Source: Arthrobacter alpinus (GTDB taxonomy: Bacteria > Actinomycetota > Actinomycetes > Actinomycetales > Micrococcaceae). Taken from it: 64,000 nt of DNA. A program made the position numbers and the translations under genes. The notes beneath the pieces are model-generated. The model was given only the letters and a program-made list of their open reading frames with translations, was not told the origin of the DNA and made no database searches. Numbering within the stretch: the first letter of the stretch is position 1; each line of letters begins with the position of its first letter. This document shows, piece after piece, positions 3 through 13,216 of the stretch. The stretch lies in NCBI RefSeq assembly GCF_900105965.1, contig NZ_FNTV01000002.1, positions 124,001-188,000 of the forward strand. Reading direction: 5' to 3'.

Positions 3-251
3 GTGCTCAAGGCACTCTCGGACCCGAACCGGCTGCGCCTGCTCTCCATCGTCAAAGCCGGCGACGGCGGCGAGGCTTGCGTGTGTGACCTCACCGAGCC
101 CCTGGATTTGGGTCAGCCCACCGTCTCCCACCATTTGAAGATCTTGGTTGATGCCGGACTGTTGGAGCGCGAAAAGCGCGGCACCTGGGCCTACTACTCA
201 CTGGTCCCGGGCGCCCTCGAAAAGGCCGCGACTCTCATCACCGGACTGTGA
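3..251 (+). CDS. arsR: ArsR-family repressor, 5' end cut by window
   Basis: This is the C-terminal 82 residues of a winged-helix metalloregulator of the ArsR/SmtB family, which normally represses an arsenic operon until arsenite binds. The visible part has the DPNRLRLL helix, a CVCDL segment where ArsR proteins carry their arsenite-binding cysteines, and the recognition helix PTVSHHLKIL. Family members are usually 100-120 residues, so about 25-30 N-terminal residues lie before the window and the GTG at 3 is probably internal. Its TGA overlaps the GTG start of the acetyltransferase by 4 nt, so the genes are co-transcribed. The arsenic role is supported by the two downstream genes. Confidence 0.85.
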   Translation: MLKALSDPNRLRLLSIVKAGDGGEACVCDLTEPLDLGQPTVSHHLKILVDAGLLEREKRGTWAYYSLVPGALEKAATLITGL

Positions 252-763
252 CTGAGCACGGGGTTCAAGGCGTGCAGATCCGCCTCATGGCCGAGAGTGA
301 CTGGGATGCTGTCCAGGGCATCTATGCCCAAGGAATCGCCACCGGAAATGCCACCTTTGAAGAACAGGTGCCGGCGAAAGCTGACTTTCTGTCCACAAGG
401 ATCCCGGAGCTCCGCATCGTCGCCGAGGATACCAACGGCGATGTTGTTGGCTGGGCTGCAGCATCGCCCACCTCAACCAGGGCGGCCTACCGCGGCGTCA
501 TTGAGCACTCCGTGTACATAGACCAGGCCCAGGCAGGCAGGGGCATCGCCACCCAGCTACTCCAAGACCTGATCTCACGCGCCCAAACCAATGGCTATTG
601 GACAATACAATCCGGGATCTTCGCTGAAAACACGGCCAGCAGGGCCCTCCACACCAAAACAGGATTCAGGGAAATCGGCCGACGCGAACGCATCGCACAA
701 ATGACCTTCGGGCCAGCAGCCGGGCAGTGGCGAGACACCTTCCTCTACGAACTTCGCCTCTAA
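248..763 (+). CDS. arsN: GNAT N-acetyltransferase, ArsN/phosphinothricin acetyltransferase type
   Basis: A 171-residue GNAT-fold acetyltransferase that would transfer an acetyl group from acetyl-CoA to a small amino-acid-like substrate. The layout is that of the phosphinothricin/arsinothricin acetyltransferase family: an IYAQGIATGNATFEE segment near residue 30, a YRGVIEHSVYI strand, the acetyl-CoA loop QAGRGIATQLL near residue 97, and a C-terminal GFREIGRRER strand. In ars operons this family (ArsN1) inactivates the organoarsenical antibiotic arsinothricin. The GTG start overlaps the arsR stop by 4 nt, and an arsenite exporter follows, which favours the ArsN reading. General phosphinothricin or methionine-sulfoximine acetylation remains possible. 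Confidence 0.8.
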   Translation: MTEHGVQGVQIRLMAESDWDAVQGIYAQGIATGNATFEEQVPAKADFLSTRIPELRIVAEDTNGDVVGWAAASPTSTRAAYRGVIEHSVYIDQAQAGRGIATQLLQDLISRAQTNGYWTIQSGIFAENTASRALHTKTGFREIGRRERIAQMTFGPAAGQWRDTFLYELRL

Positions 764-973
764 TCCTGCACGGGACCGCATCCCCACCTCTGAACGATGA
801 ACGCGGTCAACCCGGGGTCTGAGCACCAACCCTGTGACAGCCATTGCAATGATGTCTACTCCGCACGATTTTTTGGCCCATTTCCTGAACCAGGAGGACA
901 GGACTCTAGGCGCCATTTTCGCCTTTGCGCGAGCATGACTCCGATTCCAATAAGACCAGCCCTCTCGCCTAGC

Positions 974-1969
974 ATGGACTGGGTGAAACCCCAGAATCTT
1001 GTTACCCGGATGGAACACCATCAGATTGGCTTGTACCTGATCGCCATCCTGACAGGCGGGGCCATTGGACTCTTAGCCCCGGGCTCGGCAGGGGCGCTGG
1101 AACACTCAATCAATCCGATCCTTGGATTGTTGCTATACGCGACGTTTTTGGGGATTCCTTTTGCATCCATTGGCAAGGCCGCCAAGGATCTGCGGTTCAT
1201 GGGCACTGTGATGGCGCTGAATTTTGTGATTGTTCCTGTGGTGGTGTTTGGATTGACCCGTTTCATTGCCGGCGACCAAGCCCTGTTGCTAGGGGTACTG
1301 CTTGTGTTGTTGACTCCTTGCATTGACTACGTAATTGTATTCACCGGTCTGGCTGGCGGGTCCAGCGATCGACTCCTGGCCGCCGCCCCGGTGTTGATGC
1401 TGCTCCAGATGCTTTTGTTGCCCCTGTATCTGCTGTTGTTCGTTGGCCCCGAAGTTGTCTCGGCAATCGACCCGACACCCTTCATTGAAGCCTTGGTTGT
1501 CTTGATCATCATTCCGCTGGGCGCGGCGGCACTCACACAGGCACTGGCGCGCACACATTCGGCGGGCCGGACCATGATGACGATCATGCAGGCCCTCATG
1601 GTGCCGCTCATGATGGGGACATTGGCCGTGGTCGTAGGCTCCCAAATCACCGGAGTCGGGAAGGAACTTGGGTCTCTGCTGGCAGTGGTCCCGCTCTACG
1701 CCGCATTCCTCGTCGTGATGGTGCCACTGGGCATGCTCGCGGCGAAGTCGGCCCGACTCGACGCACCCGCTACCCTTGCCGTGATTTTCAGTGGCGCGAC
1801 CCGCAATTCACTCGTGGTGCTCCCGCTGGCCCTGGCACTGCCCGAACCTCTCTCCCTGGCTGCCCTGGTCGTGGTTTCCCAGACCCTAGTCGAACTCATC
1901 GGCATGATCCTCTACGTCCGGTACCTTCCAGTGCTCATCCGCAATGAAAACCCTCAACAGCCGGCCTAG
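974..1969 (+). CDS. Arsenic resistance protein, bile acid:sodium symporter/ACR3-type exporter
   Basis: A 331-residue integral membrane protein with about ten hydrophobic helices, of the BASS superfamily branch annotated as arsenic resistance protein. It would export arsenite across the cytoplasmic membrane. I see the conserved LVLLTPCIDYVIVFTGLAGG segment with a cysteine in helix 4, where ACR3 proteins carry the transport cysteine, and SGATRNSLVVLPLALALP in helix 9. The frame is open from 797, but the extra 59 residues are not protein-like. ATG 974 gives a family-length protein beginning just before the first helix. About 200 nt separate it from arsN, so it may have its own promoter. Confidence 0.85.
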   Translation: MDWVKPQNLVTRMEHHQIGLYLIAILTGGAIGLLAPGSAGALEHSINPILGLLLYATFLGIPFASIGKAAKDLRFMGTVMALNFVIVPVVVFGLTRFIAGDQALLLGVLLVLLTPCIDYVIVFTGLAGGSSDRLLAAAPVLMLLQMLLLPLYLLLFVGPEVVSAIDPTPFIEALVVLIIIPLGAAALTQALARTHSAGRTMMTIMQALMVPLMMGTLAVVVGSQITGVGKELGSLLAVVPLYAAFLVVMVPLGMLAAKSARLDAPATLAVIFSGATRNSLVVLPLALALPEPLSLAALVVVSQTLVELIGMILYVRYLPVLIRNENPQQPA

Positions 1970-3255: not shown

Positions 3256-3752
3256 CAATTAGCCGTAGCCGTTTCCCAAAATAGTTGACCCTAGATGCTC
3301 GCTCCGGAGGACAGGGCGGCATTGAAGTCGCTCCTTGCAATTGCGGGACACCACTAGGCCCCACCTCGCCAAGGCAATGGCGGAAAACCTGAGTGTTCAG
3401 CTGATGTAAATACCTGTCATGGCAAAACTTCTGATAAACAAAAGACAAAAGCGGTCCGATGACGACACCTGTAGGGAGCGGGGAGCGTTGACCTGGCAAA
3501 GAAACCTTGAGAGAGGTATGAGTTTTCAAGCGCCTGAGGGGAATCCCAGCGAGGTTCTATCCGTTCTTGCACCACCCCCACCTAGCGTCGCGCACGTCAG
3601 AAGCGACACCCAAAATCGTTCAGAATATTCCTCAAGTTCCGCGTATTTATTGATCAAAACCCTTGTATATTCATATGAATAAACGATAGAATAGGGGTAT
3701 AGCAACAGCCGAACATAACCAGTGAATATACGAAACGCAGGAGCTGATTCCC
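3256..3752 (+). promoter_or_regulatory. AT-rich control region with a perfect 14-bp palindrome
   Basis: This 497-nt stretch has no convincing gene; an 87-codon reading frame at 3419 lacks coding character. The last 150 nt turn AT-rich. They contain the perfect palindrome TATTCATATGAATA (3668-3681), and a related half TGAATATA lies near 3723. A dimeric repressor could bind there and control the NrdH-like operon. An AGGAG-like sequence in ACGCAGGAGCTG sits before the ATG at 3753. Confidence 0.45.
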
Positions 3753-4016
3753 ATGACGATCACCATCTACTCAAAGCCTTACAAGTCCGGTTGCTTTCAG
3801 TGCGACAAGACGAAGGATTTGCTGGACGCTGCAGGGATCAGTTATATATTCGTTGACATCACGAGCAACGATGCAGCGCTGGAGTACATCTCGGAAGACC
3901 TCGGCTACGCGCAAGCCCCCGTGGTGCTGGTAGAAATTGCTGGCAGCATCGATCACTGGTCAGGGCTGAACCCACCCAAGATTCAGAAGGCCATTGCACT
4001 AGAGCTGGCCGCGTAG
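3753..4016 (+). CDS. NrdH-like glutaredoxin-family protein
   Basis: An 87-residue thioredoxin-fold redox protein. After the strand TITIYSKPY it has a CFQC active site at about residues 14-17, then helix KTKDLLDAAGI, and a cis-proline strand AQAPVVLVE near residue 53. NrdH and similar redoxins reduce disulfides in partners such as ribonucleotide reductase. This one is short and has a phenylalanine inside the CxxC, so its partner may differ. A start at ATG 3753 is supported by an AGGAG-like site. The next gene follows within 15 nt, suggesting an operon. A second redoxin of this type is encoded at 38074, also in a plasmid context. Confidence 0.75.
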   Translation: MTITIYSKPYKSGCFQCDKTKDLLDAAGISYIFVDITSNDAALEYISEDLGYAQAPVVLVEIAGSIDHWSGLNPPKIQKAIALELAA

Positions 4017-4028
4017 GGAGTGGACGCC

Positions 4029-4361
4029 ATGACAACCAGGATCACCCGCCTTGAAGACGTTGACTACTACCTCCCCCTCTACGACGAGGACGGCGACGTG
4101 GATCATGAGGCCTCCTACCACGGGAACATTCTCGCCCTGGGCCGCGACTTTGGACTCCCGGGCGTCAGCGACTGGACAGCCCACGAGGTCATGACCACAT
4201 TCCCCGAGGTGGAACATTTCAGCCAAGCTACCCCCGAAGTTCAGGCCGCATTGATTGCCCTGGGGAAGTCCATCGACAAGTTGAACCCCGAGGAACCGTC
4301 CACTGCAGAAAAGGTCGACGCGGCCACCGCTAACGTTCACGCAGTACTCACCACCAAGTAA
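4029..4361 (+). CDS. Hypothetical acidic plasmid protein, 110 aa
   Basis: A small acidic soluble protein that I do not recognise. It begins with TTRITRLEDVDYYLPLYDEDGD and has a helical C-terminal half, with a TPEVQAALIALGKSIDKL segment. No cysteine motif, signal peptide or membrane segment is present. ATG 4029 is chosen over GTG 4020, although both are in frame. It lies between the redoxin gene and ssb with gaps of about 12 nt, so the three would be one transcript. Its place next to ssb suggests a backbone gene of a conjugative or mobilisable plasmid. Function unknown. Confidence 0.6.
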   Translation: MTTRITRLEDVDYYLPLYDEDGDVDHEASYHGNILALGRDFGLPGVSDWTAHEVMTTFPEVEHFSQATPEVQAALIALGKSIDKLNPEEPSTAEKVDAATANVHAVLTTK

Positions 4362-4374
4362 AAGGAGCAAGACC

Positions 4375-4743
4375 ATGGCCGGCGAAACCACCATTACAGT
4401 CATTGGCAATCTCACCAGCGACCCCGAACTTCGGTTTACCCCGGTTTCCCGTGAGTTCGTGAAAACTGAAGGTGCTCTTGCGGGGAACTTCACCATAGAC
4501 TCGACGCTTCGGGACTTCGTTCTTGCCTCGAATGCGCGGAAGGGCAGTGAAGCGATCCTTTTCCTCACCACTGCCTGGCGGGAGATGGCTGAGAGGGTCG
4601 ATGAACCTTCCTGTAAGAGGTTCTGCTCCATAGTTTTGGGCTGGTTGAAGCCCGGTCCCGATGAACGGGGGAAGGCAGGAGTCGGATGGCCCTCGACTTG
4701 GATGTCGATGAAATTTGTACCAGCCTTCAGTATGACGAGTTGA
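4375..4743 (+). pseudogene. ssb: ssb: intact 5' end fused to a decayed, divergent 3' part
   Basis: Single-stranded-DNA-binding protein forms an OB-fold tetramer that coats ssDNA in replication and transfer. Codons 1-23 (MAGETTITVIGNLTSDPELRFTP) are a textbook actinobacterial SSB start, preceded by AAAGGAG. After 4443 the match degrades. The expected [12 protein letters not shown] is replaced by a longer stretch ending in GNFTIDSTLRDF, and only scattered agreement follows (LFLTTAWREMAERV). Homology then shifts frame and the reading frame ends early at 122 residues, without the acidic SSB tail. The missing continuation of the first 23 codons is found at about 11242, so this looks like one half of a split gene joined to an old alternative 3' end. 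Confidence 0.75.
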
Positions 4744-4746
4744 GGA

Positions 4747-5079
4747 ATGGACGTACTCAGCGAGGCCCCCAGAGCTCCGCGCATGTCCCATCGGAAGATT
4801 CTCAAACCGCGGGCTAAACGCGATGACAATTCCATCAGCGCCAAGTTCACCCGTGATGACGCTGAGCAGATCCGTGCCGTCGTAAGGGGTGCGGGTATTC
4901 AGGAAGGCTATGCTTCGGCCAATGACTTCATAGAGGCAGCCGTCCGGCGGGAATTGAGGCGGGTGCAGCGCAAGTACAACAACGGCAGGAAATGGCCTGG
5001 TGTGCCTGCAGGGCAACTACGCCCAGGCCGGCGTACGAGGGAAGAGTCCGCAGTACATGAAGATCGCCAGCAAACTTAG
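4747..5079 (+). CDS. Small RHH-like DNA-binding protein, copy 1
   Basis: A 110-residue basic protein with a divergent N-terminus and a core that matches the protein at 12375: an EGYASxNDxxEA segment, then RRELRRVQRKYNNG and a C-terminal WPGVPAGQLRPGRR. Its size, basic charge and short strand-helix-helix pattern suggest a ribbon-helix-helix type regulator or centromere-binding partner, but that is inference. The start could be ATG 4747 or ATG 4783; the homologous region begins after residue 25. It lies 3 nt after the decayed ssb part, and the paralogue also follows ssb. The pair therefore seems to have been copied or imported as an ssb-RHH block. Confidence 0.6.
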   Translation: MDVLSEAPRAPRMSHRKILKPRAKRDDNSISAKFTRDDAEQIRAVVRGAGIQEGYASANDFIEAAVRRELRRVQRKYNNGRKWPGVPAGQLRPGRRTREESAVHEDRQQT

Positions 5080-5290
5080 TCCGCCAGAACGTAGGGGTAT
5101 CGATGGTTCCGGATCTGAAGGCGACCAGGCCCTCCGAAACGTTGAATTTCGGTGATTAGGTGCTCCATGACTATCGATTGCTTGGCCAGAAGTACAGAAG
5201 AAGCTTCACTGTTTACTGCGTGTACAGCGCAGGTTTTCGTTTGTCATTGATATCGTATCTCTGAAGCCTACGAGTGGAGTTTAAGAGAAT

Positions 5291-5488
5291 ATGACGGAAG
5301 ATAGCGAAGTGCTGACAACCCAAGAAGCGGCAGCTCTACTCCGAATAAGTACCAAGACTCTGCTAGCACTTGTTCGAGAAGGTGCGATGCCGGGCGAAAA
5401 GGTGGGGCGAGCGTGGCGATTTCTCCGCGTTGACGTCCTTGCGCACGTGCGGGGGACAAATTTCAAGACAGCCGGGGGACCTGAATGA
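5291..5488 (+). CDS. Excisionase/MerR-type helix-turn-helix protein
   Basis: A 65-residue DNA-binding protein of the excisionase-like winged HTH type. Visible features are LTTQEAAALLRISTKTLLALVREGAMPGEK, with the HTH at about residues 9-30, and the typical wing VGRAWRFLRVDVLAHV. Such small proteins bind DNA as regulators or recombination directionality factors. The stop codon overlaps the start of the ParB-like gene (ATGA), so the product is made from the same message and may regulate that operon. About 210 nt precede it without a gene, which is room for the operon promoter. It could equally be the directionality factor for the nearby tyrosine recombinases. Confidence 0.8.
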   Translation: MTEDSEVLTTQEAAALLRISTKTLLALVREGAMPGEKVGRAWRFLRVDVLAHVRGTNFKTAGGPE

Positions 5489-6981
5489 TTGACATGTCAA
5501 CGTGGGAAGTTCTGACACTAGGTGTCGCGGACGAACTGTTGCTCGATCCTAAGAACGTCCGCCTCGACATCGCAGAAGGCGTCCCTCAGGCAGACCTCAT
5601 CCAAGACTTGTTTGCAAACGAAAAGGCATTGAGTCTTGTCGAAGGCATCACTAAAGTTGGTTTTCTAACACATGAGGTACCTATCGTTGTCGAGCGGGAC
5701 AAGAAATTCGTCGTAGTTGAAGGCAACCGCCGAGTTGCAGCACTCAAAGCGATACAGAACCCTCTCCTCGTTCCCGATCACCAATCAAAGATCCGGAAGT
5801 TGATCGGCAACGATTTCGACCATGCATCGCTAAGTCACATCACGGTCAAGAAAGCTCCTTCGCAAGATGATGCGGACCAGCTAATTGCTGCGCTGCATAC
5901 TGGCAATCAGCGGGTTGCTTGGAGCCCTACTCGACAAGCAGCCTTCTTCCAAGCACAGCTGGATGCAGGAAAAACTGCGGAAGAGCTGATTTCTCAATAC
6001 CCGACAGTTGACGTTCGAAAATTCATCACTCGAAGCCGAATTCTCGGACTGTTCCGCGAAGTTGACTATGACGATGCTGCCGTAGCTGATTACACCAGGA
6101 AGCGCCGCTTCCCGGTGTCTACACTGGCGCGATTGTACGAAAATGAGAATTTTCTCGAACTAGTCGGCATCTCAGTCGACGATGACACGGCGTCCGTTTC
6201 TTTAACTGCCAATCGTGGGGCCTTCAAACTGATCGCCACCAAAATAATCCTTGACATGAGTTCTGGGGTTATCAACACACGAGTGCTGAACAGAACTAAC
6301 AGCGCAAGCTACACGGAGTACATGGACGATCTCCGTGACCTACTCACTTCATATTCTGCTGCCGAGCACGATAACTTAGGCGCTGACGGGAATGAATCGA
6401 GTGCGTCAACATCTCGACCGTCAGAGCCGACCAATACAAGGGCTGGCACCAGTGACAAAACGGCACCCTCGAGCGGCAAGGGCAAAGGTGATTCCGACAG
6501 TCAGGGATCAAGTAAAACGAAGCCAAACCCACCCCTTCGCGAACGCAATTACCTCAACACGGATGTTCTGAGTGTGTCTCCCGACTTCCCTCCGGTAGTC
6601 GGTGACATCCTTCGCGAACTATCCAAGCTCCACGTTGGAACTTTTCCCAATGCAACAATGGACCTTCTTCGCACCTTCCTGGAGAAGACCATCAAGGCTT
6701 ATGCCGAAATTGTAGGTGAAGATATAAGGCGCACGGGCAACGAGCAAGGGTTTGTCCAGCTCAGCCACAGCCTCCTATGGCTCGAGGCTCATTTTAAGGA
6801 AAACGGCCCCAAAGCATTCGTGCAGCCGATCCAGAGAATCCGTGGAGGAAAGACGTTTGTCGGATCCAAAGAGCATTTGGATGCCACCAACCACAACCAC
6901 CATGTAGTGACGTCGGCCGACGATGTTCGCGCTGCATGGTCTTCTATCGAAAGCATCCTTAAGGCAGTTCTGAAACCATGA
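5485..6981 (+). CDS. ParB/sulfiredoxin-fold protein with helical C-terminal domain, linked to a methylase
   Basis: A 498-residue protein. The N-terminal 110 residues show the ParB/Srx fold, with LLLDPKNVRLD at about residue 19 and the ParB box VVEGNRRVAALKA near residue 77. A helical middle follows (residues 125-290). Then comes a low-complexity Ser/Thr/Gly/Lys linker (about 300-350), and a C-terminal helical domain ending DATNHNHHVVTSADDVRAAW near residue 470. That ending resembles C-terminal domains of defence proteins only loosely. Chromosomal ParB parts (CTP-dependent spreading, dimerisation tail) are not evident and no ParA is adjacent. The gene overlaps its neighbours by 4 nt on both sides. 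In methylase-linked modules a ParB/Srx domain may act as a nuclease; this is inference. Confidence 0.75.
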   Translation: MIDMSTWEVLTLGVADELLLDPKNVRLDIAEGVPQADLIQDLFANEKALSLVEGITKVGFLTHEVPIVVERDKKFVVVEGNRRVAALKAIQNPLLVPDHQSKIRKLIGNDFDHASLSHITVKKAPSQDDADQLIAALHTGNQRVAWSPTRQAAFFQAQLDAGKTAEELISQYPTVDVRKFITRSRILGLFREVDYDDAAVADYTRKRRFPVSTLARLYENENFLELVGISVDDDTASVSLTANRGAFKLIATKIILDMSSGVINTRVLNRTNSASYTEYMDDLRDLLTSYSAAEHDNLGADGNESSASTSRPSEPTNTRAGTSDKTAPSSGKGKGDSDSQGSSKTKPNPPLRERNYLNTDVLSVSPDFPPVVGDILRELSKLHVGTFPNATMDLLRTFLEKTIKAYAEIVGEDIRRTGNEQGFVQLSHSLLWLEAHFKENGPKAFVQPIQRIRGGKTFVGSKEHLDATNHNHHVVTSADDVRAAWSSIESILKAVLKP

Positions 6982-7877
6982 CAACACCATCAGCCACTAC
7001 CAAAACACCTAAGAGGGTCACGGTATCCCCGCTCCGGTATCCCGGCGGCAAGGGCATGCTGTACTCCAGGCTGCGGAATATCATCCGAACAAACGATCTG
7101 ACTTCTAGCACGTTCGTGGAGCCCTACGCAGGAGGGGCCGGAGCAGCCTTAGGGCTTCTGGTTTCGGGTCAGGTTTCCCGTATCGCCATCAACGACCTCG
7201 ATCCGGCGATTTTTGCTTTCTGGAAAGCCGTTGTCGAGCGGCCGAAAGAATTCACACAGCTTGTCAGCACGGTCGCTCTGACCGTTGATGAGTGGGAAAA
7301 ACAAAGGGAACGGTATCTCAACTCATCTAGAGATGACTATCTGACTCTCGGATTTGCGACGTTCTATCTGAACCGAACAAATCGATCCGGCATTCTGAAC
7401 GGAGGTCCAATTGGAGGTAAAGATCAAAGAGGAAACTACAAGATAGATGCCAGATTCAATCGGGAGACCCTTGTAGAACGCATAAGACTTATTGCACTGC
7501 ATGCTGGGCGCATAGAAATCACCAATGAGGACGGCCTAGGAGTCATTGACCGACATGCGCTCGACCCGGAATCACTCATTTATGCTGATCCGCCGTACTT
7601 TGAGAAGGCTGGTTCGCTCTATATGAACGCGTTCAATATGGACGGGCACGAACTCCTTGCTTCCCATCTTAACCAGGCAAGTGCGGCGAAATGGGTACTC
7701 ACCTACGACGATGTAGCGCACGTTCACCGGTTGTACCAGGACCGCAGGCGTATGTTGTTTTCGTTGAATTACTCGGCCCACAGAGTCACCAAGGCCCAAG
7801 AGCTGATGGTCTTTTCAGACAGTCTGACGATTCCCGATGAAATCAAGGAAGGCAACCAACTCTTGCTCGCTGCCTAG
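6978..7877 (+). CDS. D12-class (Dam-like) N6-adenine DNA methyltransferase
   Basis: A 299-residue methyltransferase that would transfer a methyl group from S-adenosylmethionine to the N6 of adenine in DNA. The motifs are complete and in the alpha-class order. The SAM-binding part is PLRYPGGKG at about residue 15 and FVEPYAGGAGAALGL at about residue 49. Motif IV is DPPYF at about residue 202. The insert FATFYLNRTNRSGILNGGPIGG is typical of D12 enzymes. The start overlaps the ParB-like stop (ATGA), so the two are translationally coupled. There is no ordinary restriction endonuclease next door. The partner protein could be the effector, or this could be an orphan methylase. The target site cannot be read from sequence. 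Confidence 0.9.
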   Translation: MTTPSATTKTPKRVTVSPLRYPGGKGMLYSRLRNIIRTNDLTSSTFVEPYAGGAGAALGLLVSGQVSRIAINDLDPAIFAFWKAVVERPKEFTQLVSTVALTVDEWEKQRERYLNSSRDDYLTLGFATFYLNRTNRSGILNGGPIGGKDQRGNYKIDARFNRETLVERIRLIALHAGRIEITNEDGLGVIDRHALDPESLIYADPPYFEKAGSLYMNAFNMDGHELLASHLNQASAAKWVLTYDDVAHVHRLYQDRRRMLFSLNYSAHRVTKAQELMVFSDSLTIPDEIKEGNQLLLAA

Positions 7878-7891
7878 GGGTCGTAGGCTCT

Positions 7892-7917
7892 TGGGCCATC
7901 CATCTAACAGTGGCCCA
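7892..7917. terminator. Hairpin between convergent methylase and recombinase operons
   Basis: A perfect 7-bp stem TGGGCCA/TGGCCCA with a 12-nt loop lies 15 nt after the methylase stop and before the end of the oppositely oriented recombinase gene. There is no T tract, so it is a weak terminator at best, but the convergent position fits that job. Confidence 0.45.
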
Positions 7918-8003
7918 TAGTGGTGCGTCCACCGCGTTCCCCCTATCCCGCAAGCCAGCTGAACATCGGTCTTTTGCGCCGTCCTCGGGTCCAGTTTCCT
8001 TCT

Positions 8004-9665
8004 CTATGTCGGGTTGAGGGTGTTTGTGTATCGCTCGGCGCCTTTCACACTCAGCCCAAAGAGATCACAGAGTCTGCGTATATCTTGAGTTGCGTTGGCT
8101 TCGTGCAGGATGCGGTCCTCACGGAGTGCCTGGGGGGACATACCCAGGGTATGGATGACCCAGACGTTGCTGACCGGGGTTGCTCGAACGGCGCTCTGTT
8201 TGGTGACGAACAAGTATGGATTACTCGTTTCGGGCCATTGGATGGCACGGTGGTCCAGCCAAGCGGACAGGCTTTCGCGAACGGGGCGAGCCAGCAAAAC
8301 TGTTCGTCCCGGCAGGTGTATCCGGCCGTCTTGAATATCCGTAAGTAGCAAGGCACGGACATGTTCGCTGCGCAGGGCGTGGTAACCGATGAGGTTGGCC
8401 AATGCGGTGCGGGCTGGGTTATTGGACTCAAGTGCTGCGCGCATAGCGTTTTCGTTGATCGGCAGAGGAATGCGGGACTCGGGGCGGCCGGTTTTGATGT
8501 GGGTCGTGGGGTTGGTAAAGACAAGTCGCTTTGACTTGAGGGTGCGGAACAGCGACCGCAACGAGGTTCCAGCCAGAGCACGATCGCTTCCTTGCGAGGG
8601 AATCATTCGATCGACATCGTCGCGGTTGATTTCTCGCAGGGAAGTTCGACCTTCGGCGGCCCACGCATGTACAGCGGGCAGCGCGGATCGGACCCGTACC
8701 TTGATGGTGACATGTGCCTTCGGACGCGACCGCGGTGCTGATGAGGTTCCGTAGAGCATTATTTCAAACCAGACTCGCATCTCGTTGTTGATGGATTCTG
8801 GGAGGTCGGCTATCTTTCGGTCGAACCAGTCGATGATCGAGGGTTCACGGTCATCCTCAAGTAGCCCGGCCGCATCGAGAACGTCCAGTATCGGCTGACG
8901 GCTGAACACGATCGGATCGAGTTGATTGACTTCACTGGCCTTGATCCTTGAGCCGGGAGTGTCCTGAATACGCGCGAGAATACCAAGACCTTGGCAGGTA
9001 ACGCTGAGACGTGTCTTGCTCCACCCATGCTTGAGTGCATGGTCTCGAGCGACGTGATCCAGCAGCCATGCGAAGCCCGGGTCGGGTGGACTCAGACGAA
9101 TCCGCAAGCGTGTGAGGTCGCGGGGCACGTGTACCAGAGTTAGCTGCTCGTGCCGTAATGGATACCTGCGACGAGCGGATGCGGGTTTAGCCTGGATGGG
9201 ATTGAGCCGGCGTTGTCGCCAAATCAGGCCGACGATGGACAGCTGTTGACCGTGTTGATTCATTTCAATGATGCTGGGTCCTGTTCCGTGGGGGCGTGCA
9301 CCAACTGCAGTGCGCCAACACAGCCGGCAGAACCCATCAGGGTTTAGGGCTTTCGTTTCCTGGCAGGAGAGGCACGGGCGGACGGTTTTGAATCTTCGGC
9401 GCCATCCTCTGCATCCCGCGCAGAGCCAGCTTGTGTGGCGAGTGACTCCCCAGCCGAGGCAATCCAAGCAGCTGTCCACCAGTTGAGGTGCGAAGCGATG
9501 ACATCGCTGGCATAACCCACCAGAGTAATATCGTTCGGTGGATCCGCATTTACGACAGGGTGGTGGCGCGAATGGTCCGCCGGGCATGCATTGGTGGCAA
9601 TGCACGTCTCGCGCTGTCGCTACCGGACGTGCACCACACTGAGTACATGTCCGCGGAGTGCTCAC
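8004..9665 (-). CDS. Tyrosine recombinase-like protein with N-terminal zinc ribbons
   Basis: A 553-residue protein. The first 120 residues hold several CxxC pairs (CTQCGAR, CHQC, CRKCGS, CQRC, CLDC, CAGC, CLSC, CRLC), which suggests four stacked zinc ribbons. The C-terminal part looks like a tyrosine recombinase catalytic domain: GYHALRSEHVRALLLTDI around residue 430, SPQALREDR near residue 500, and a terminal GAERYTNTL with the candidate nucleophile tyrosine. It would cut and join DNA at specific sites. The GTG start overlaps the stop of the HTH gene by 4 nt. Together with the upstream integrase it recalls multi-recombinase elements such as Tn554 or RIT types, but the order and the zinc ribbons differ from those I know. 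Confidence 0.7.
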   Translation of the reverse strand: MSTPRTCTQCGARPVATARDVHCHQCMPGGPFAPPPCRKCGSTERYYSGGLCQRCHRFAPQLVDSCLDCLGWGVTRHTSWLCAGCRGWRRRFKTVRPCLSCQETKALNPDGFCRLCWRTAVGARPHGTGPSIIEMNQHGQQLSIVGLIWRQRRLNPIQAKPASARRRYPLRHEQLTLVHVPRDLTRLRIRLSPPDPGFAWLLDHVARDHALKHGWSKTRLSVTCQGLGILARIQDTPGSRIKASEVNQLDPIVFSRQPILDVLDAAGLLEDDREPSIIDWFDRKIADLPESINNEMRVWFEIMLYGTSSAPRSRPKAHVTIKVRVRSALPAVHAWAAEGRTSLREINRDDVDRMIPSQGSDRALAGTSLRSLFRTLKSKRLVFTNPTTHIKTGRPESRIPLPINENAMRAALESNNPARTALANLIGYHALRSEHVRALLLTDIQDGRIHLPGRTVLLARPVRESLSAWLDHRAIQWPETSNPYLFVTKQSAVRATPVSNVWVIHTLGMSPQALREDRILHEANATQDIRRLCDLFGLSVKGAERYTNTLNPT

Positions 9666-9979
9666 GCCGGCGGAAGGGAACGGATGCGTCCCAACCGCGG
9701 AGTGATGATCTGCCCCCCAACAATTGAGATCTTTTCCTTAGCGGGCCGGCGTGCGGCCACCGCCTCAGGTTCCCTGATCAGCAGCTCATTCGGTTCACAG
9801 TCCAGGACGTGGCAGATAATGTCGAGATCATCCAACCGGATCGACGTGGGAGTGCCGGTCCAAAGGGCCGACATCTTCCCCGCGCTAATCTCAAGCCCGG
9901 CCTCGGCCAACCGCCGTCTCATTTCCGTCGATTTCCAGACTCCGAGTTCGGCAGCTTTCATGCGCAGGTTCCAACGCAT
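9662..9979 (-). CDS. XRE-family HTH protein in recombinase operon
   Basis: A 105-residue protein with a helix-turn-helix of the Cro/C1 type: MRWNLRMKAAELGVWKSTEMRRRL, then AGLEISAGKMSALWTG and LDDLDIICHVLDCEPNELL, which is the usual end of the domain. The frame is open further upstream, but MRWNLR at 9979 is the best start because it follows the integrase stop by 4 nt. It is the middle gene of a three-gene operon, integrase then HTH then zinc-ribbon recombinase. It probably controls or assists those recombinases. Confidence 0.8.
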   Translation of the reverse strand: MRWNLRMKAAELGVWKSTEMRRRLAEAGLEISAGKMSALWTGTPTSIRLDDLDIICHVLDCEPNELLIREPEAVAARRPAKEKISIVGGQIITPRLGRIRSLPPA

Positions 9980-9983
9980 TCGT

Positions 9984-11071
9984 TCACCTCTTTCCGTTTC
10001 CCCATCGCAGAGCGACACGTTCGTTCGCCACTGCCCATGCGTTTTCGACATGATTGTCATGGACATGGATATAGCGGGTGGTCGTAGACAGCCATTCATG
10101 TCCGAGAAGGTCTTGGATAGCCTTCAGATCCATTCCACGTTCGTACATCGATGAGGCGCAGAAGTGACGCATCCCGTGGGGGGTTAGCCGCCCGGACCAG
10201 TCCGGAAGCCACAGGCTCACTGACCTAGCGAAACCGGACCTTAACGCATCATCTCCTGCCCTGCGGCTCCGACCGAGTTCGGGGTCCCGCCGTTCGCTCG
10301 GAAGTAAAGGCGCATCCGGGTCATCCCAGTCGTCCCCGAATTGATGGCGCACGTCGCTTAGCCACCAGTTCAGTAACCCATCTACGCCGTTGATAGCTGG
10401 CACCATCCTTGTCTTGGGTCCTCGGCCCATGCTGCCCTTGCCGAAGCGGACATGTAGTTTTCCTTGCTCGCCCAAGTCAGGGCGCCAGTCGCGGATATCG
10501 AGCATTACCGTTTCGCTGATCCTCAGGCCGACCCGCCGCCACAGCGAAGCAGCAAGGTAGTCCCTTGCTGCGGGTAGATACTTGCGCGATTCGGGCAAGG
10601 CCTCACGCCAACCGGAGAACAATGCTTCGACTTCGAGGCTGGAGGGGGAACCCTGATCATGCCACCGTAATCTGCCTTGGCTGGGCGGTTGAACTCGTCA
10701 ACAGGTTGGGTCACCACGTGTCCGGTGAGTTGATGGATCTCACCTTGGTACCGGCTAATTAGGAACTCGAAGAACCGCGCAATGGTCCCAGCTTTTCCAT
10801 GCACAGTACTCTTGGCAAGCCCTTTGGACTTCCGCTCTTGGTTCAGGAATCTGTCGACGTCGCCGGGTTGGGCAGTCCAAAGGTAGTTTCCGAGATGACG
10901 AAGGAAGCTGAAGATCACGGACCGCGCCTGCGAGATGTACTCGTCGCTGATGCCGGAAGCCGCCGCTGCCAGTGCGAACTGGTCCAAGAGTTCCTGCTCA
11001 AAATCATCTAGTTCTTGAGGGGACATAGAGTGCCTGGTTATGGCAGGGCGAACGACCGCTAACTTAACCAT
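9984..11071 (-). pseudogene. Tyrosine recombinase/integrase split by a one-base frameshift
   Basis: Two overlapping frames together encode one tyrosine recombinase of about 362 residues. The N-terminal frame carries a SAM-like core-binding domain (SARSVIFSFL-like helices, KGLAKSTVHGKAGTIARFFEFLISRY). The C-terminal frame carries the catalytic residues: GLRISETVML (Arg), HGMRHFCASSMYERG (His-x-x-Arg), DLLGHEW (His) and TRYIHV (Tyr). The frames separate at a run of five C (on the coding strand GTTCCCCCTCC near 10645). One more C would restore VPPSSLEVEALFSGW. A true deletion is most likely; slippage at the C run could make some full-length protein. Its 5' end faces the right junction of the ssb insertion. 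Confidence 0.8.
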
Positions 11072-11241
11072 GTGGTCCCCACTTCGGTCGTAACGAAATA
11101 TTGTCAAATAAATAGTATATTAGTCAGGAATGCTGAAGAAAATTCATTACCAAGCGGTAGTGCTCGAGATCGCTAGGGCGACTGGATGTAGTCAGCGTAT
11201 AGGGGAGGTTCTGCATACCGAACCCACGGCAGTTGCGATAA

Positions 11242-11747
11242 GCGGATCCGCGGTAGCCAACTTCACCATTGCTTCAACACCACGCACCTTCGACCGCCAG
11301 TCCAACGAGTGGAAAGACGGGGAAACACTCTTCCTCCGTGCTTCCATCTGGCGTGAAGCCGCCGAGAACGTGGCCGAGTCCCTGACCAAGGGAACCCGCG
11401 TGATCGTCTCTGGCCGGTTGAAGTCACGGACATATGACACCAAGGAAGGTGAAAAGCGCACCGTCATGGAGCTTGAAGTCGATGAAATCGGCCCCTCGCT
11501 GCGCTACGCCAACGCCAAAATCAACCGCACCCAACGCTCCAGCAACCAGGGAAACCCGGCAGCTGCAGCTGCGGCTGCCCCTGCCTTCGGCGGGCAGGGT
11601 TACCAAGCCGGCGGACCCGATAACCAAAGCGGGGGAGGGTATGCGCCATCATCGCCAGCCACCACCAACGACCCCTGGGCAATTCCTTCAGAGCCGATTA
11701 ATGGAGGGTGGGGGAGCGGCCCGGATCAGTCTGAGCCGCCGTTCTAA
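11242..11747 (+). pseudogene. ssb: ssb 3' part, separated from its first 23 codons
   Basis: From about 11242 the frame reads [17 protein letters not shown], then [36 protein letters not shown] and [14 protein letters not shown]. It ends with a Gly/Ala/Pro/Gln linker and the acidic tip [10 protein letters not shown], a normal actinobacterial SSB from residue 24 on. The frame is open upstream to ATG 11130, but the 37 residues that gives ([13 protein letters not shown]...) bear no resemblance to the first OB-fold strand. They come from the inserted DNA. The missing start is at 4375-4443. If translated from 11130 the protein would lack strand beta-1 and may not fold. Confidence 0.75.
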
Positions 11748-11833
11748 ACCCTCCGCAGTGTCGAGGCCAGTGGATATGCTGGCCCCGAGGTACATCCCAG
11801 ACACGGATATGTGAAACGACTAGGACTAAAGCC

Positions 11834-12385
11834 ATGAGTAACGAACAAGAGCCCCCGCTGATACTCCACCGCATCTCAGATTTTGGGGATGATCTCAGCG
11901 AGGACAACTCCAGATTTCTCACCATTCCCAATTTTCCACTTAGCAAAGAGGACGAAACCTTGAGTCTCAACGATGAACTCCGCGCCTGGGCCAAAGGGCT
12001 GCACGCCTTAGAAGCAGCAACCGAACTGTTGATTAGATCCTTTGACGGGCGGTTCGCCAAGCCGGGGAACCCCTGGATCGATAAGGATATGGATTCCGGG
12101 AATGTGTGGGTCAACTTCGAGGCGATCCCCGAAAACCTGGGGGGAACATCCGGAGGGGAACGCCGACTCCTGATGCTCGCCGCATCCCTGTCAGACGTTG
12201 GCGTTGAGATAAACCTCGGAGACTACCTCCCTGGCCTTGACCGCAAGATTCTCAATCTCGTCCTGGCAGCTGTGGCCCAGGCTGCCGGCAGCCACGAACA
12301 CTCAGACCTTCTCGTCAATGAAGCCGGCGAGCCGACTTCGATTCAGCGCCTAGATTCCCTGTACCCATGGCCCGATGAGAGCTAA
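11834..12385 (+). CDS. Hypothetical plasmid protein, 183 aa, between ssb and RHH gene
   Basis: An acidic, soluble protein that I do not recognise. It has an N-terminal strand LILHRISDFGDDL, and a middle with LNDELRAWAKGLHALEAATELLIRSFDG. A segment NLGGTSGGERRLLMLAASLSDVGVEINLGDYLPGLDRKILNLVLAAVAQAAG looks like a helical regulatory domain. No signal peptide or catalytic motif is evident. Start at ATG 11834, about 85 nt after the ssb stop. The end overlaps the start of the RHH-like gene by 11 nt, so the two are probably coupled. Its conserved position between ssb and the RHH-like gene suggests a maintenance function. The copy of this block at 4.4-5.1 kb lacks it. Confidence 0.6.
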   Translation: MSNEQEPPLILHRISDFGDDLSEDNSRFLTIPNFPLSKEDETLSLNDELRAWAKGLHALEAATELLIRSFDGRFAKPGNPWIDKDMDSGNVWVNFEAIPENLGGTSGGERRLLMLAASLSDVGVEINLGDYLPGLDRKILNLVLAAVAQAAGSHEHSDLLVNEAGEPTSIQRLDSLYPWPDES

Positions 12386-12635
12386 GCGAACACCACCAAG
12401 CTTCAGCATCACCCTGCCGGTGGAAGTGGCGGACCAGGTGCGGGCGGCACTACAAGCCGCCGGCGCTCTGGAAGGCTATGCCTCCGTGAATGACTTGTTG
12501 GAGGCTTCAATACGTAAGGAGCTCCGCAGACTACAGCGCAAACACAACGCCGGTAAAGCATGGCCGGGGATCCCCGCCGGTGTGTTGCGCCCCGGGCGAC
12601 GCACCCAGGAAGAAACACAAACTACTGCTCAGTAG
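12375..12635 (+). CDS. Small RHH-like DNA-binding protein, copy 2
   Basis: An 86-residue basic protein. Its core has a strand SFSITLP, helix VADQVRAALQAAG, then EGYASVNDLLEASIRKELRRLQRKHNAG, and a C-terminal WPGIPAGVLRPGRR. Strand-helix-helix with a basic first strand suggests a ribbon-helix-helix dimer, as in plasmid partition or copy-control proteins, though no ParA is nearby. It is the paralogue of 4747-5079, with roughly half of the core residues identical. It overlaps the preceding gene by 11 nt. It could be an operon autoregulator or a centromere-binding protein. Confidence 0.65.
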   Translation: MRAKRTPPSFSITLPVEVADQVRAALQAAGALEGYASVNDLLEASIRKELRRLQRKHNAGKAWPGIPAGVLRPGRRTQEETQTTAQ

Positions 12636-12680
12636 GGCCAAGCACCGAAATCACCGCACCAACACATTGAAGACAAGACC

Positions 12681-12959
12681 ATGGATGCAAGCCGGAGGCC
12701 ACACGTAGACGTCAAAGACGAACGCGGCGGGATCATCGATCCCGAGCTGTTGACAACCAAACAGCGGACACAACGGCGCGCCGCCATTACGGAACAGTTC
12801 CGTGAGGGTGGACAGCTGTCGAACTTGCAGAGTGTGCGCGACGAGCTGGCCATCAGAATGTCATGGGTGGAGGAGTGGGACCACCACAGGGCCTTGAATA
12901 AGTGGACGCTACGCCAAATGGGCGGACTCATTGCCGCGAGTAGTGCCGGAAATGGCTGA
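12681..12959 (+). CDS. Hypothetical small charged protein, 92 aa
   Basis: A small charged soluble protein, not recognised. It reads MDASRRPHVDVKDERGGIIDPELLTTKQR and continues with a helix-rich, arginine-rich middle and WVEEWDHHRALNKWTLRQMGGL near the end. It follows the RHH-like gene by about 45 nt and overlaps the next short coding segment (ATG 12952). It probably belongs to the same plasmid backbone operon. No function is inferred. Confidence 0.55.
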   Translation: MDASRRPHVDVKDERGGIIDPELLTTKQRTQRRAAITEQFREGGQLSNLQSVRDELAIRMSWVEEWDHHRALNKWTLRQMGGLIAASSAGNG

Positions 12960-13136
12960 ACCAGACTGGTTTAGCGTGGACGAGGCTGCCCGCGCGCTGA
13001 AAGCCTACGACCAGGGATGAGAAGTTGACCAGAAGTTTGGGAACAGGACACCCCGGAGGCTGAACGCCAGGACTACCGCCGCGAAGTGGCCCGCATAGCG
13101 ATCGTGGTTGAGATTCTCCAGAAGGCGGGGCGGTAA
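12952..13136 (+). pseudogene. Small backbone gene with internal frameshift
   Basis: Reading from ATG 12952 gives MAEPDWFSVDEAARALKAYDQG and then a stop at 13020. A different frame downstream encodes EVWEQDTPEAERQDYRREVARIA and ends EILQKAGR with a TAA at 13134. Both pieces have protein-like composition and good codon use. Together they would be a roughly 60-residue protein of the kind found in plasmid operons, broken by an indel near 13020. I do not recognise the family. Confidence 0.45.
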
Positions 13137-13216
13137 GGGTCTCGCCCCAATAGCCCCTCGTGAATGCATCTTAATGTTTGTTTGAGTGTGTGGTGCTGCT
13201 GAGGCCGGTTGTATTC

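What the first reader, a model, noticed from the sequence alone, without database searches (positions are those of the whole stretch)
4375..11747. ssb split by a 6.8-kb insertion that carries a replacement 3' end and defence-like cargo
The sequence shows that codons 1-23 of a standard ssb end at 4443, and that codons 24 onward resume in frame at 11242. Joining them restores [12 protein letters not shown]. The intervening DNA begins with a degenerate, divergent ssb 3' part and an RHH-like gene, paralogous to the RHH-like gene that follows the real ssb 3' end at 12375. It ends with an integrase operon whose start is near the right junction. Elements that integrate into a gene and bring a substitute gene end are known for tyrosine recombinases. 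Here the substitute is decayed, so the element may be old. That this is one element is inference.
Basis: partly seen in the sequence, partly recalled or inferred. Interest (0 to 1): 0.8.

Follow-up and report, generated by a model that had tools for sequence, protein, structure and literature searches.

The report
Mobile element inside plasmid ssb gene
[quoted passage not shown] relatives show that such elements bring a replacement gene end whose own terminal DNA becomes part of the coding sequence, although the copy seen here looks broken.

Summary
An Arthrobacter alpinus plasmid carries the uninterrupted locus (about 90% identical on both sides). Against it, window 4444-11240 (6797 bp) is a clean insertion between ssb codons 23 and 24, without target duplication. 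A Paenarthrobacter nitroguajacolicus contig shows the same architecture at the same codon, with unbroken chimeric ssb and integrase. In genome G139 a related element sits at a second ssb site (after codon 114), apparently in two different ssb genes, again bringing a substitute ssb end plus an RHH gene. Ends carry inverted arms (CGAACYCACGG-like), 5 bp and a 6-bp non-identical overlap. The module is a tyrosine recombinase, an HTH protein and a degenerate Cys-rich recombinase. A 44-bp left-end probe alone hit 5 of 72,556 plasmids; the 4 read have the third gene or a remnant beside it, the fifth an integrase 2 kb away. The left end is in frame and adds a VSREFGKTEG-like peptide to SSB. Cargo is a PD-Lambda-5-like anti-phage pair. 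Here the substitute ssb and the integrase are interrupted, so this copy is probably defective. GInts are already reported to insert at the start or end of ssb: a new variant of a known kind. Movement was not tested.

The parts
3753..4016 (+). glutaredoxin-like gene of the plasmid backbone (left flank)
   Evidence: Pfam Glutaredoxin 5.5e-11; same order in A. alpinus plasmid
4375..4443 (+). ssb codons 1-23 (5' part of the interrupted gene)
   Evidence: 66 of 69 bases identical to the uninterrupted ssb of NZ_CP013746.1
4438..4443 (+). 6-bp target overlap ACCCCG (codons Thr-Pro) that stays at the left junction
   Evidence: alignment with empty sites and L013; role inferred
4444..11240 (.). the inserted element, 6797 bp
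   Evidence: absent from the empty site in A. alpinus
4444..4459 (+). left end: GTTTC spacer plus arm CCGTGAGTTCG, read in frame with ssb
   Evidence: conserved in L013, L031, L086, L044 and at modules in Nocardia/Streptomyces plasmids
4444..4814 (+). substitute ssb 3' part, frame interrupted in this copy
   Evidence: tblastn of the unbroken L013 chimera: residues 1-92 at 4375-4650 (frame 3), 89-147 at 4638-4814 (frame 2)
4747..5079 (+). element-borne RHH/CB_ParB_C gene, follows the substitute ssb
   Evidence: Pfam CB_ParB_C 4.4e-11; an RHH gene follows the chimera in L013 and the substitute tail in L031
5291..5488 (+). small excisionase/MAD1-like HTH protein
   Evidence: HTH_17 4e-13; NCBIfam excise 2.5e-12 and MAD1 6.3e-11, the latter below its cut-off
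5485..6981 (+). PD-Lambda-5 A-like (ParB-like) defence gene
   Evidence: PADLOC PD-Lambda-5_A 2.3e-44 over residues 16-495
6978..7877 (+). PD-Lambda-5 B-like D12 adenine methyltransferase
   Evidence: PADLOC PD-Lambda-5_B 1.2e-107; MethyltransfD12 2e-17
8004..9665 (-). third gene of the module: Cys-rich N-terminus plus degenerate tyrosine-recombinase C-terminus
   Evidence: profile hits XerA 5hxy 8.8e-05; Arg430 24/24, Arg513 23/24, Tyr544 24/24, the expected box His is Gln in 18/24 (assignment by eye)
9662..10099 (-). XRE-type HTH gene of the module
   Evidence: HTH_26 3.1e-11
9984..11107 (-). tyrosine recombinase, frame interrupted in this copy (two ORFs)
   Evidence: two ORFs in different frames; 83% and 89% identical to the unbroken 362-aa protein of L013; Phage_integrase 3.3e-19 on the second ORF
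11219..11240 (+). right end: arm CGAACCCACGG, spacer CAGTT, element-borne 6 bp GCGATA
   Evidence: similar motif upstream of homologous integrases
11241..11747 (+). displaced ssb codons 24 to stop
   Evidence: 159 aligned codons, dN/dS 0.05 against A. alpinus ssb
11834..12385 (+). backbone gene following ssb (right flank)
   Evidence: same place in A. alpinus plasmid
12375..12635 (+). backbone RHH gene, paralogue of the element's RHH gene
   Evidence: similar to an L013 RHH region by blastn; A. alpinus order

Best explanation
Window 4444-11240 is one mobile element that integrated by tyrosine-recombinase strand exchange at a site inside ssb (shown by comparison: a clean 6797-bp insertion between codons 23 and 24, with inverted arms at both ends). 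Its int-distal (left) end is an open reading frame in phase with ssb. It encodes an about 8-residue loop insertion and then runs on into a substitute ssb 3' part and an RHH gene, so an intact element keeps an open chimeric ssb while the recipient's own 3' part is displaced to the int-proximal end (shown in L013 and, at a second site, in G139; that the chimera is expressed and works is inferred). The 6-bp overlap is heterologous: the target's 6 bp stay at the left junction and an element-borne GCGATA/GAGATA-like hexamer stays at the right (pattern shown, chemistry inferred). The element carries cargo, here a PD-Lambda-5-like defence pair. In this window the substitute ssb and the integrase are both interrupted, so this copy is probably immobile and this ssb locus non-functional. 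The same replicon has a second ssb, uninterrupted at codon 23 but ending about 19 residues before the A. alpinus protein's tip, and the chromosome has a full-length ssb.
For: Empty site at about 90% identity both sides. Second copy (4820 bp) at the same codon with unbroken chimera and integrase and different cargo. Third element (L031, G139) at a second ssb site: two contigs with different ssb genes (C56, C58) end in its first 127 bp, and its right end continues into an ssb tail plus RHH; uninterrupted relatives of that site exist (P0241, P0242, P0244, P0247). ERGS1:01 plasmid carries a left-end remnant fused into ssb at the same codon. Inverted arms with constant 5+6 spacing in the three ssb elements. 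The 44-bp L031 left-end probe alone hit 5 of 72,556 plasmids; 4 were read and all 4 have the third gene or a remnant beside it, the fifth was judged from coordinates. In the 5 type-2 ssb loci found without using the DNA motif, GTTTCCCGTG follows the junction in 5 of 5, while the preceding 6 bp take three forms.
Against: No excision, circle or transposition was observed. The integrase frame in the window is interrupted. For nearly all SSB proteins with the translated-end peptide I could not see the genome around them; in four loci that I read (L044, L045, L046, L088) no integrase module of this kind lies nearby. Only 7 of 395 sampled family genomes hold a close integrase (E up to 1e-60), and of those 7 only the window's genome and G139 have it in ssb (and contexts read). 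The two sides of the target show little similarity to the arms, judged by eye. The G139 double insertion is read from assembly overlaps, with only one right-hand contig found.
Confidence: 0.88

Rival explanations
1. The VSREFGKTEG-type SSB is simply a native plasmid SSB variant. The mobile module once landed next to such a gene and captured its 3' part plus RHH, and later moved into type-1 ssb genes. The loop peptide is then an SSB feature that happens to serve as the element's end.
For: Type-2 ssb genes occur without the module in L044, L045, L046 and L088; 40 of 231 listed SSBs carry the peptide at site 1.
Against: Similar terminal DNA occurs at the ends of modules or module remnants in Nocardia and Streptomyces plasmids where the ssb query found no ssb, and the peptide occurs at a second, non-homologous place in SSB (23 of 231).
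Confidence: 0.25
2. Homologous recombination or cointegrate formation between two related plasmids with different ssb loci produced the mosaic; no site-specific event was involved.
For: The replicon carries a second glutaredoxin-ssb-RHH locus (L007), so it may itself be a fused plasmid; the substitute is homologous to ssb.
Against: The right junction is at exactly codon 24 next to a conserved arm in two elements only about 70-74% identical to each other; inverted arms and fixed spacing; other insertions at the same codon and at a second site.
Confidence: 0.04
3. The type-2 SSBs without a module are scars: an element integrated, donated its ssb end, and the rest (module, cargo, displaced 3' part) was deleted. 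This concerns the origin of those SSBs and is compatible with the main explanation.
For: ERGS1:01 plasmid shows such a deletion, though there the gene was broken; identity between L013 and L044 rises from 81% (codons 1-21) to 100% over the 30 bases right of the junction and falls to 66-68% from base 130 on.
Against: No displaced ssb 3' part or module remnant was found in L044, L045 or L046 (L045 has one weak match to a different integrase).
Confidence: 0.4

Closest known systems
[quoted passage not shown] PMC5385486)
   Same: Multi-recombinase module at one end, variable cargo, staggered 6-7 nt overlap with heteroduplex, and reported insertion at the beginning or, preferentially, the end of ssb genes; the authors also report changes of variable length in the C-terminus of some target products.
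   Different: GInts have three tyrosine-recombinase genes plus GinD and are reported from Proteobacteria, Bacteroidetes, Firmicutes and Verrucomicrobia. Here there is one canonical recombinase, an XRE-type HTH and one degenerate Cys-rich recombinase, on actinobacterial replicons. The substitute end covers ssb from codon 24 on plus the next gene in two elements, and the ssb tail plus the next gene in the third. In the parts I read I saw no statement that a GInt supplies a substitute gene end.
Tn554 and Tn554-related actinobacterial elements (PMC3414803)
   Same: Two recombinases, one normal and one long, plus a small protein; Tn554 makes no target duplication (title of a paper cited in PMC10214605, seen in its reference list only); Actinobacteria plasmids.
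   Different: Here the small gene is in the middle, while Tn554 is recalled as tnpA-tnpB-tnpC; the third protein is about 553-582 aa in the loci read (one relative, in L031, is an ORF of 677 codons) rather than 611-828 aa; direct comparison with Tn554 proteins was not made.
[quoted passage not shown]
   Same: 6-bp footprint, inverted imperfect ends, one ordinary and one large recombinase, cargo.
   Different: In SEs the carried 6 bp end up at the int-distal border; here a conserved hexamer sits at the int-proximal border. The gene set intA-tfp-intB-srap is not met; SEs were reported only from Gammaproteobacteria.
RIT elements (recombinase in trio; as described in PMC10214605)
   Same: Three adjacent genes with recombinases, terminal inverted repeats.
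   Different: The three archetype RIT proteins all have the catalytic tyrosine; here the middle gene is an HTH protein.
PD-Lambda-5 anti-phage system (PADLOC models)
   Same: Both gene models matched over nearly full length, genes adjacent.
   Different: Carried inside this element; activity not tested.

Membership tests
GInt | ginABCD operon: three tyrosine-recombinase-type genes plus small HLH protein | tested here: not met
   Module is Int, XRE-type HTH, degenerate long recombinase
GInt | insertion at the beginning or end of ssb (reported for several, not defining for all) | tested here: met
   codon 23 and codon 114 sites
RIT | three recombinases with catalytic tyrosine | tested here: not met
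   middle gene is HTH_26
SE | intA-tfp-intB-srap gene set | tested here: not met
   three genes, middle one HTH_26
SE | carried 6 bp placed at int-distal border | tested here: not met
   conserved GCGATA/GCGACA/GAGATA at int-proximal border in three ssb elements; static comparison only
Tn554-related | no target duplication, heterologous 6-bp junction | tested here: met
Tn554-related | tnpA/tnpB/tnpC homology | not tested
   no Tn554 sequences were fetched; the NCBIfam scan at E 0.01 listed no family named Tn554
PD-Lambda-5 | adjacent A and B genes | tested here: met
   PADLOC E 2.3e-44 and 1.2e-107, genes overlap by 4 bp
Gene-end-replacing integrative element (general kind) | integration inside a gene and supply of a substitute end in frame | tested here: met
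   unbroken chimeric frames in L013 and across the G139 contig overlap; interrupted in the window
Gene-end-replacing integrative element (general kind) | excision restores the original gene | not testable with these tools
   needs PCR or reads

The most novel reading that the evidence does not exclude
Plasmid ssb genes of Micrococcaceae act as docking genes for a family of multi-gene recombinase elements that re-encode SSB: each integration fuses the element's own terminal recombination site into the protein at one of two LR(F/Y)XX sites and swaps the SSB tail and the neighbouring RHH gene. The VSREFGKTEG-like and VPRGFTKSEG-like SSB variants seen in many database proteins would then be the heritable traces of these events, a mobile-element end turned into protein.
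Probability: 0.4. Interest if true: 0.78.

Novelty: new variant of a known kind. Interest (0 to 1): 0.62.

Why it matters
The GInt authors called the repeated choice of ssb by unrelated multi-integrase elements remarkable. This adds an actinobacterial plasmid family and a concrete hypothesis: a short LR(F/Y)XX coding motif that occurs twice in ssb, met by an element end that stays open in that frame. It also suggests how recombination-site DNA may become part of a conserved DNA-binding protein, and links an anti-phage cargo to a gene-preserving way of inserting into plasmids.

Tried and rejected
Rejected: two genuine ssb genes (the right part lacks codons 1-23). Chance motif: a viral-contig scan with the left-end pattern gave 3 hits, none with ssb or the module by tblastn. 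A first genome pattern (1 mismatch) found only the window's genome among 395. A looser pattern (2 mismatches) matched 46 of 395 genomes; I fetched and read five of those places, of which two are ssb (L086, L088) and three are not. G385 is by coordinates the plasmid already read as L044. The other places, including the large group reading GTTTCCCATGG, were not opened, so most matches of that loose pattern may be chance. Direct repeats around distant modules in conjugation loci gave nothing clear. Inverted left arms were found for L015, L016, L017, L020 and L032 (0-2 mismatches of 11, close to the module) and not convincingly for L018, L019, L036, L037 or L033-L035. Profile comparison of the third protein with the integrase family gave no match (hhalign probability 0.1, E 0.45), although the third protein's profile matches XerA. 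The search for related loci in viral contigs found no integrase relative.
Full report
OBSERVATION. The window is part of a 384,619-bp replicon of a two-contig genome. A megablast of 3601-13200 against 72,556 plasmid records found 6 records. The best, the A. alpinus A3 plasmid NZ_CP013746.1, matches both flanks as one uninterrupted stretch. Local alignment gives 90.4% on each side, with the break after window 4443 and resumption at 11241. The insertion is 6797 bp. No bases are shared between the two junctions, so there is no target duplication. The displaced ssb 3' part is not decayed: dN/dS 0.05 over 159 codons.

SECOND COPY. A genome scan with the 553-aa protein returned one locus, L013 from P. 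nitroguajacolicus SM1928. There the order is glutaredoxin, an unbroken chimeric ssb (MAGETTITVIGNLTSDPELRFTP followed by VSREFGKTEGTPVANF...), RHH, other genes (a response-regulator domain among them), then the convergent module in full, then ssb from SGSAVANF on. The element is 4820 bp by its ends. The window and L013 differ in cargo but share both ends, at about 70-74% DNA identity.

THIRD ELEMENT, SECOND SITE. In genome G139 the 6949-bp contig C57 (L031) carries a homologous module (integrase 69% identical) and starts inside an ssb-like reading frame. Contigs C56 and C58 hold two different ssb genes that both end in its first 127 bp, at ...SLRFGP or ...SLKFGP followed by IPRGFTKSEG. Its last 127 bp continue in contig C39 as an ssb tail ending GNVD, then an RHH gene. 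Uninterrupted homologues read SLRFGPATLH (P0241, P0242), SLKFGPVTVH (P0244) or SLKFGPTVH (P0247). The site is after codon 114. The element again brings a substitute tail ending GNVD and an RHH gene. That two copies exist rests on assembly overlaps; only one right-hand contig was found.

ENDS. Right (int-proximal): CGAACCCACGG-CAGTT-GCGATA in the window, CGAACACACGA-CAGTT-GCGACA in L013, CGAACTGACGG-GATTC-GAGATA in L031. Left: target 6 bp, then GTTTC-CCGTGAGTTCG (window, L013) or ATCCC-CCGTGGGTTC (L031). The arms are inverted and the spacing is the same in these three. The element-borne hexamer is similar at the int-proximal end; the target's hexamer (ACCCCG, GGGCCC) stays at the left. More distant modules in conjugation loci show a related right end (for example CGAACCTGAGCGAATAGAGATA in L017, L032, L036), and five of them an inverted left arm, others not. 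In the Streptomyces NBC_00334 locus (L020) the left end begins with a stop codon in frame with the upstream gene, which I read by eye.

THE LEFT END BELONGS TO THE ELEMENT, NOT TO SSB. A 44-bp piece of the L031 left end, searched alone, hit 5 of 72,556 plasmids, at weak E-values of 0.2-0.6. I read four (pNF1, NBC_01591, p3211-1, NBC_00984): each has the third gene or a remnant of it within about 330 bp inside, in the same orientation. For comparison, the third gene's window protein matched 100 of the 72,556 plasmids in all. For the fifth (pNF2) I rely on the coordinates. A 51-bp L013 piece hit 7 records: four ssb loci (P. defluvii, YJN-5, FW305-BF8, ERGS1:01) and three Streptomyces. One of these three was opened and shows only a weak, distant remnant of the third gene; the other two were not opened.

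TRACES IN SSB. In the five type-2 ssb loci found without the DNA motif (window, L013, L044, L045, L046) the ten bases after the junction, GTTTCCCGTG, are identical in all five, while the six before it are ACCCCG (three loci), ACGCCT and ATACCG. L013 and L044 are 81% identical over codons 1-21, 100% over the 30 bases right of the junction, 93% over the next 30 and 66-68% further downstream. Two more loci (L086, L088) came from a pattern that contains the motif. In L086 (ERGS1:01) codon 23 is followed by about 65 bp that begin with the left end and then by ssb again from WREAAENV, with a stop between: I read this as a deletion scar. L088 holds a broken type-2 ssb. Among 231 SSB proteins in the best-120 lists of two searches, a peptide pattern finds 40 with the peptide at site 1, 23 at site 2, 4 at both; 166 have neither and 6 lacked the anchor used. 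The lists are biased because the queries carried the peptide, and each search scored only 8000 candidates. Both sites follow LR(F/Y)XX, and XX is the 6-bp overlap.

CARGO AND MODULE. 5485-7877 matches PD-Lambda-5 A and B nearly end to end. The module is a XerC/D-like integrase (below the equivalog cut-offs), an HTH_26 protein and a protein with a Cys-rich N-terminus whose C-terminal profile matches XerA weakly (E 8.8e-05). Its Arg and Tyr positions are kept and the expected His positions are mostly replaced (the assignment is by eye). A profile comparison with the integrase itself found nothing.

STATE OF THIS COPY. The substitute ssb and the integrase are each interrupted relative to L013. 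The same replicon has another ssb (L007) that is uninterrupted at codon 23 but stops after 174 residues at NDPWAIP, about 19 residues before the tip of the A. alpinus protein; the chromosome has a 202-residue ssb ending SEPPF. I conclude the copy is probably immobile and its ssb locus not needed for a full SSB.

LITERATURE. For PMC5385486 (GInts) I read the outline with abstract, the whole Discussion and passages: it reports insertion at the beginning or, preferentially, the end of ssb, calls it remarkable, and describes 6-7 nt staggered cuts. For PMC10214605 (SEs) I read the first of ten parts and passages. For PMC3414803 I read passages on Tn554-related actinobacterial elements; whether their Famint36/41 pair includes this module is unresolved. 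Searches for ssb as an integration target and for gene-end replacement showed, in the listings (5 of 5, 4 of 4, 12 of 91 and 10 of 26 papers listed), no paper on a substitute ssb end carried by an element, apart from the GInt paper's report of ssb insertion. This is a limited search of an open-access library.

VERDICT. A site-specific element, a variant of the multi-recombinase kind. The ssb preference is known for GInts. I did not find in print, in those searches, the translated end, the large substitute plus RHH, the two LR(F/Y)XX sites or this actinobacterial module in ssb. Mobility, expression of the chimera and defence are untested.

Noticed in passing
11130-11240: An ATG-initiated frame inside the element's right end runs in phase into the displaced ssb 3' part (37 residues in place of codons 1-23); L013 also has an in-frame GTG. 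It may be chance or give an altered SSB.
   Followed up: no
L007 (G000:C2:245000-262000): The same replicon holds a second glutaredoxin-ssb-RHH locus, suggesting a fused plasmid; its ssb is uninterrupted at codon 23 but lacks the usual C-terminal tip.
   Followed up: partly
L036 (NZ_CP084557.1): Integrase and HTH genes of the module lie in a conjugation locus without an annotated third gene, while the ssb of the same plasmid (L012) shows a site-2-like peptide match.
   Followed up: no
L034 (G131 chromosome): A module whose integrase is about 58% identical lies near arsenic-type genes and an SSB-family-like gene in a 3.8-Mb contig (names by eye from the ORFs).
   Followed up: no
L015, L016, L017, L020: Distant modules sit inside conjugation loci, just after the 3' end of the gene that follows an SCO6880- or PrgI-family gene; in L016, L017 and L020 a VirD4-type gene lies on the other side.
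   Followed up: partly
window 3-1969: ArsR-type regulator, GNAT and arsenite-transporter-like genes left of the locus (by eye from the ORFs).
   Followed up: no
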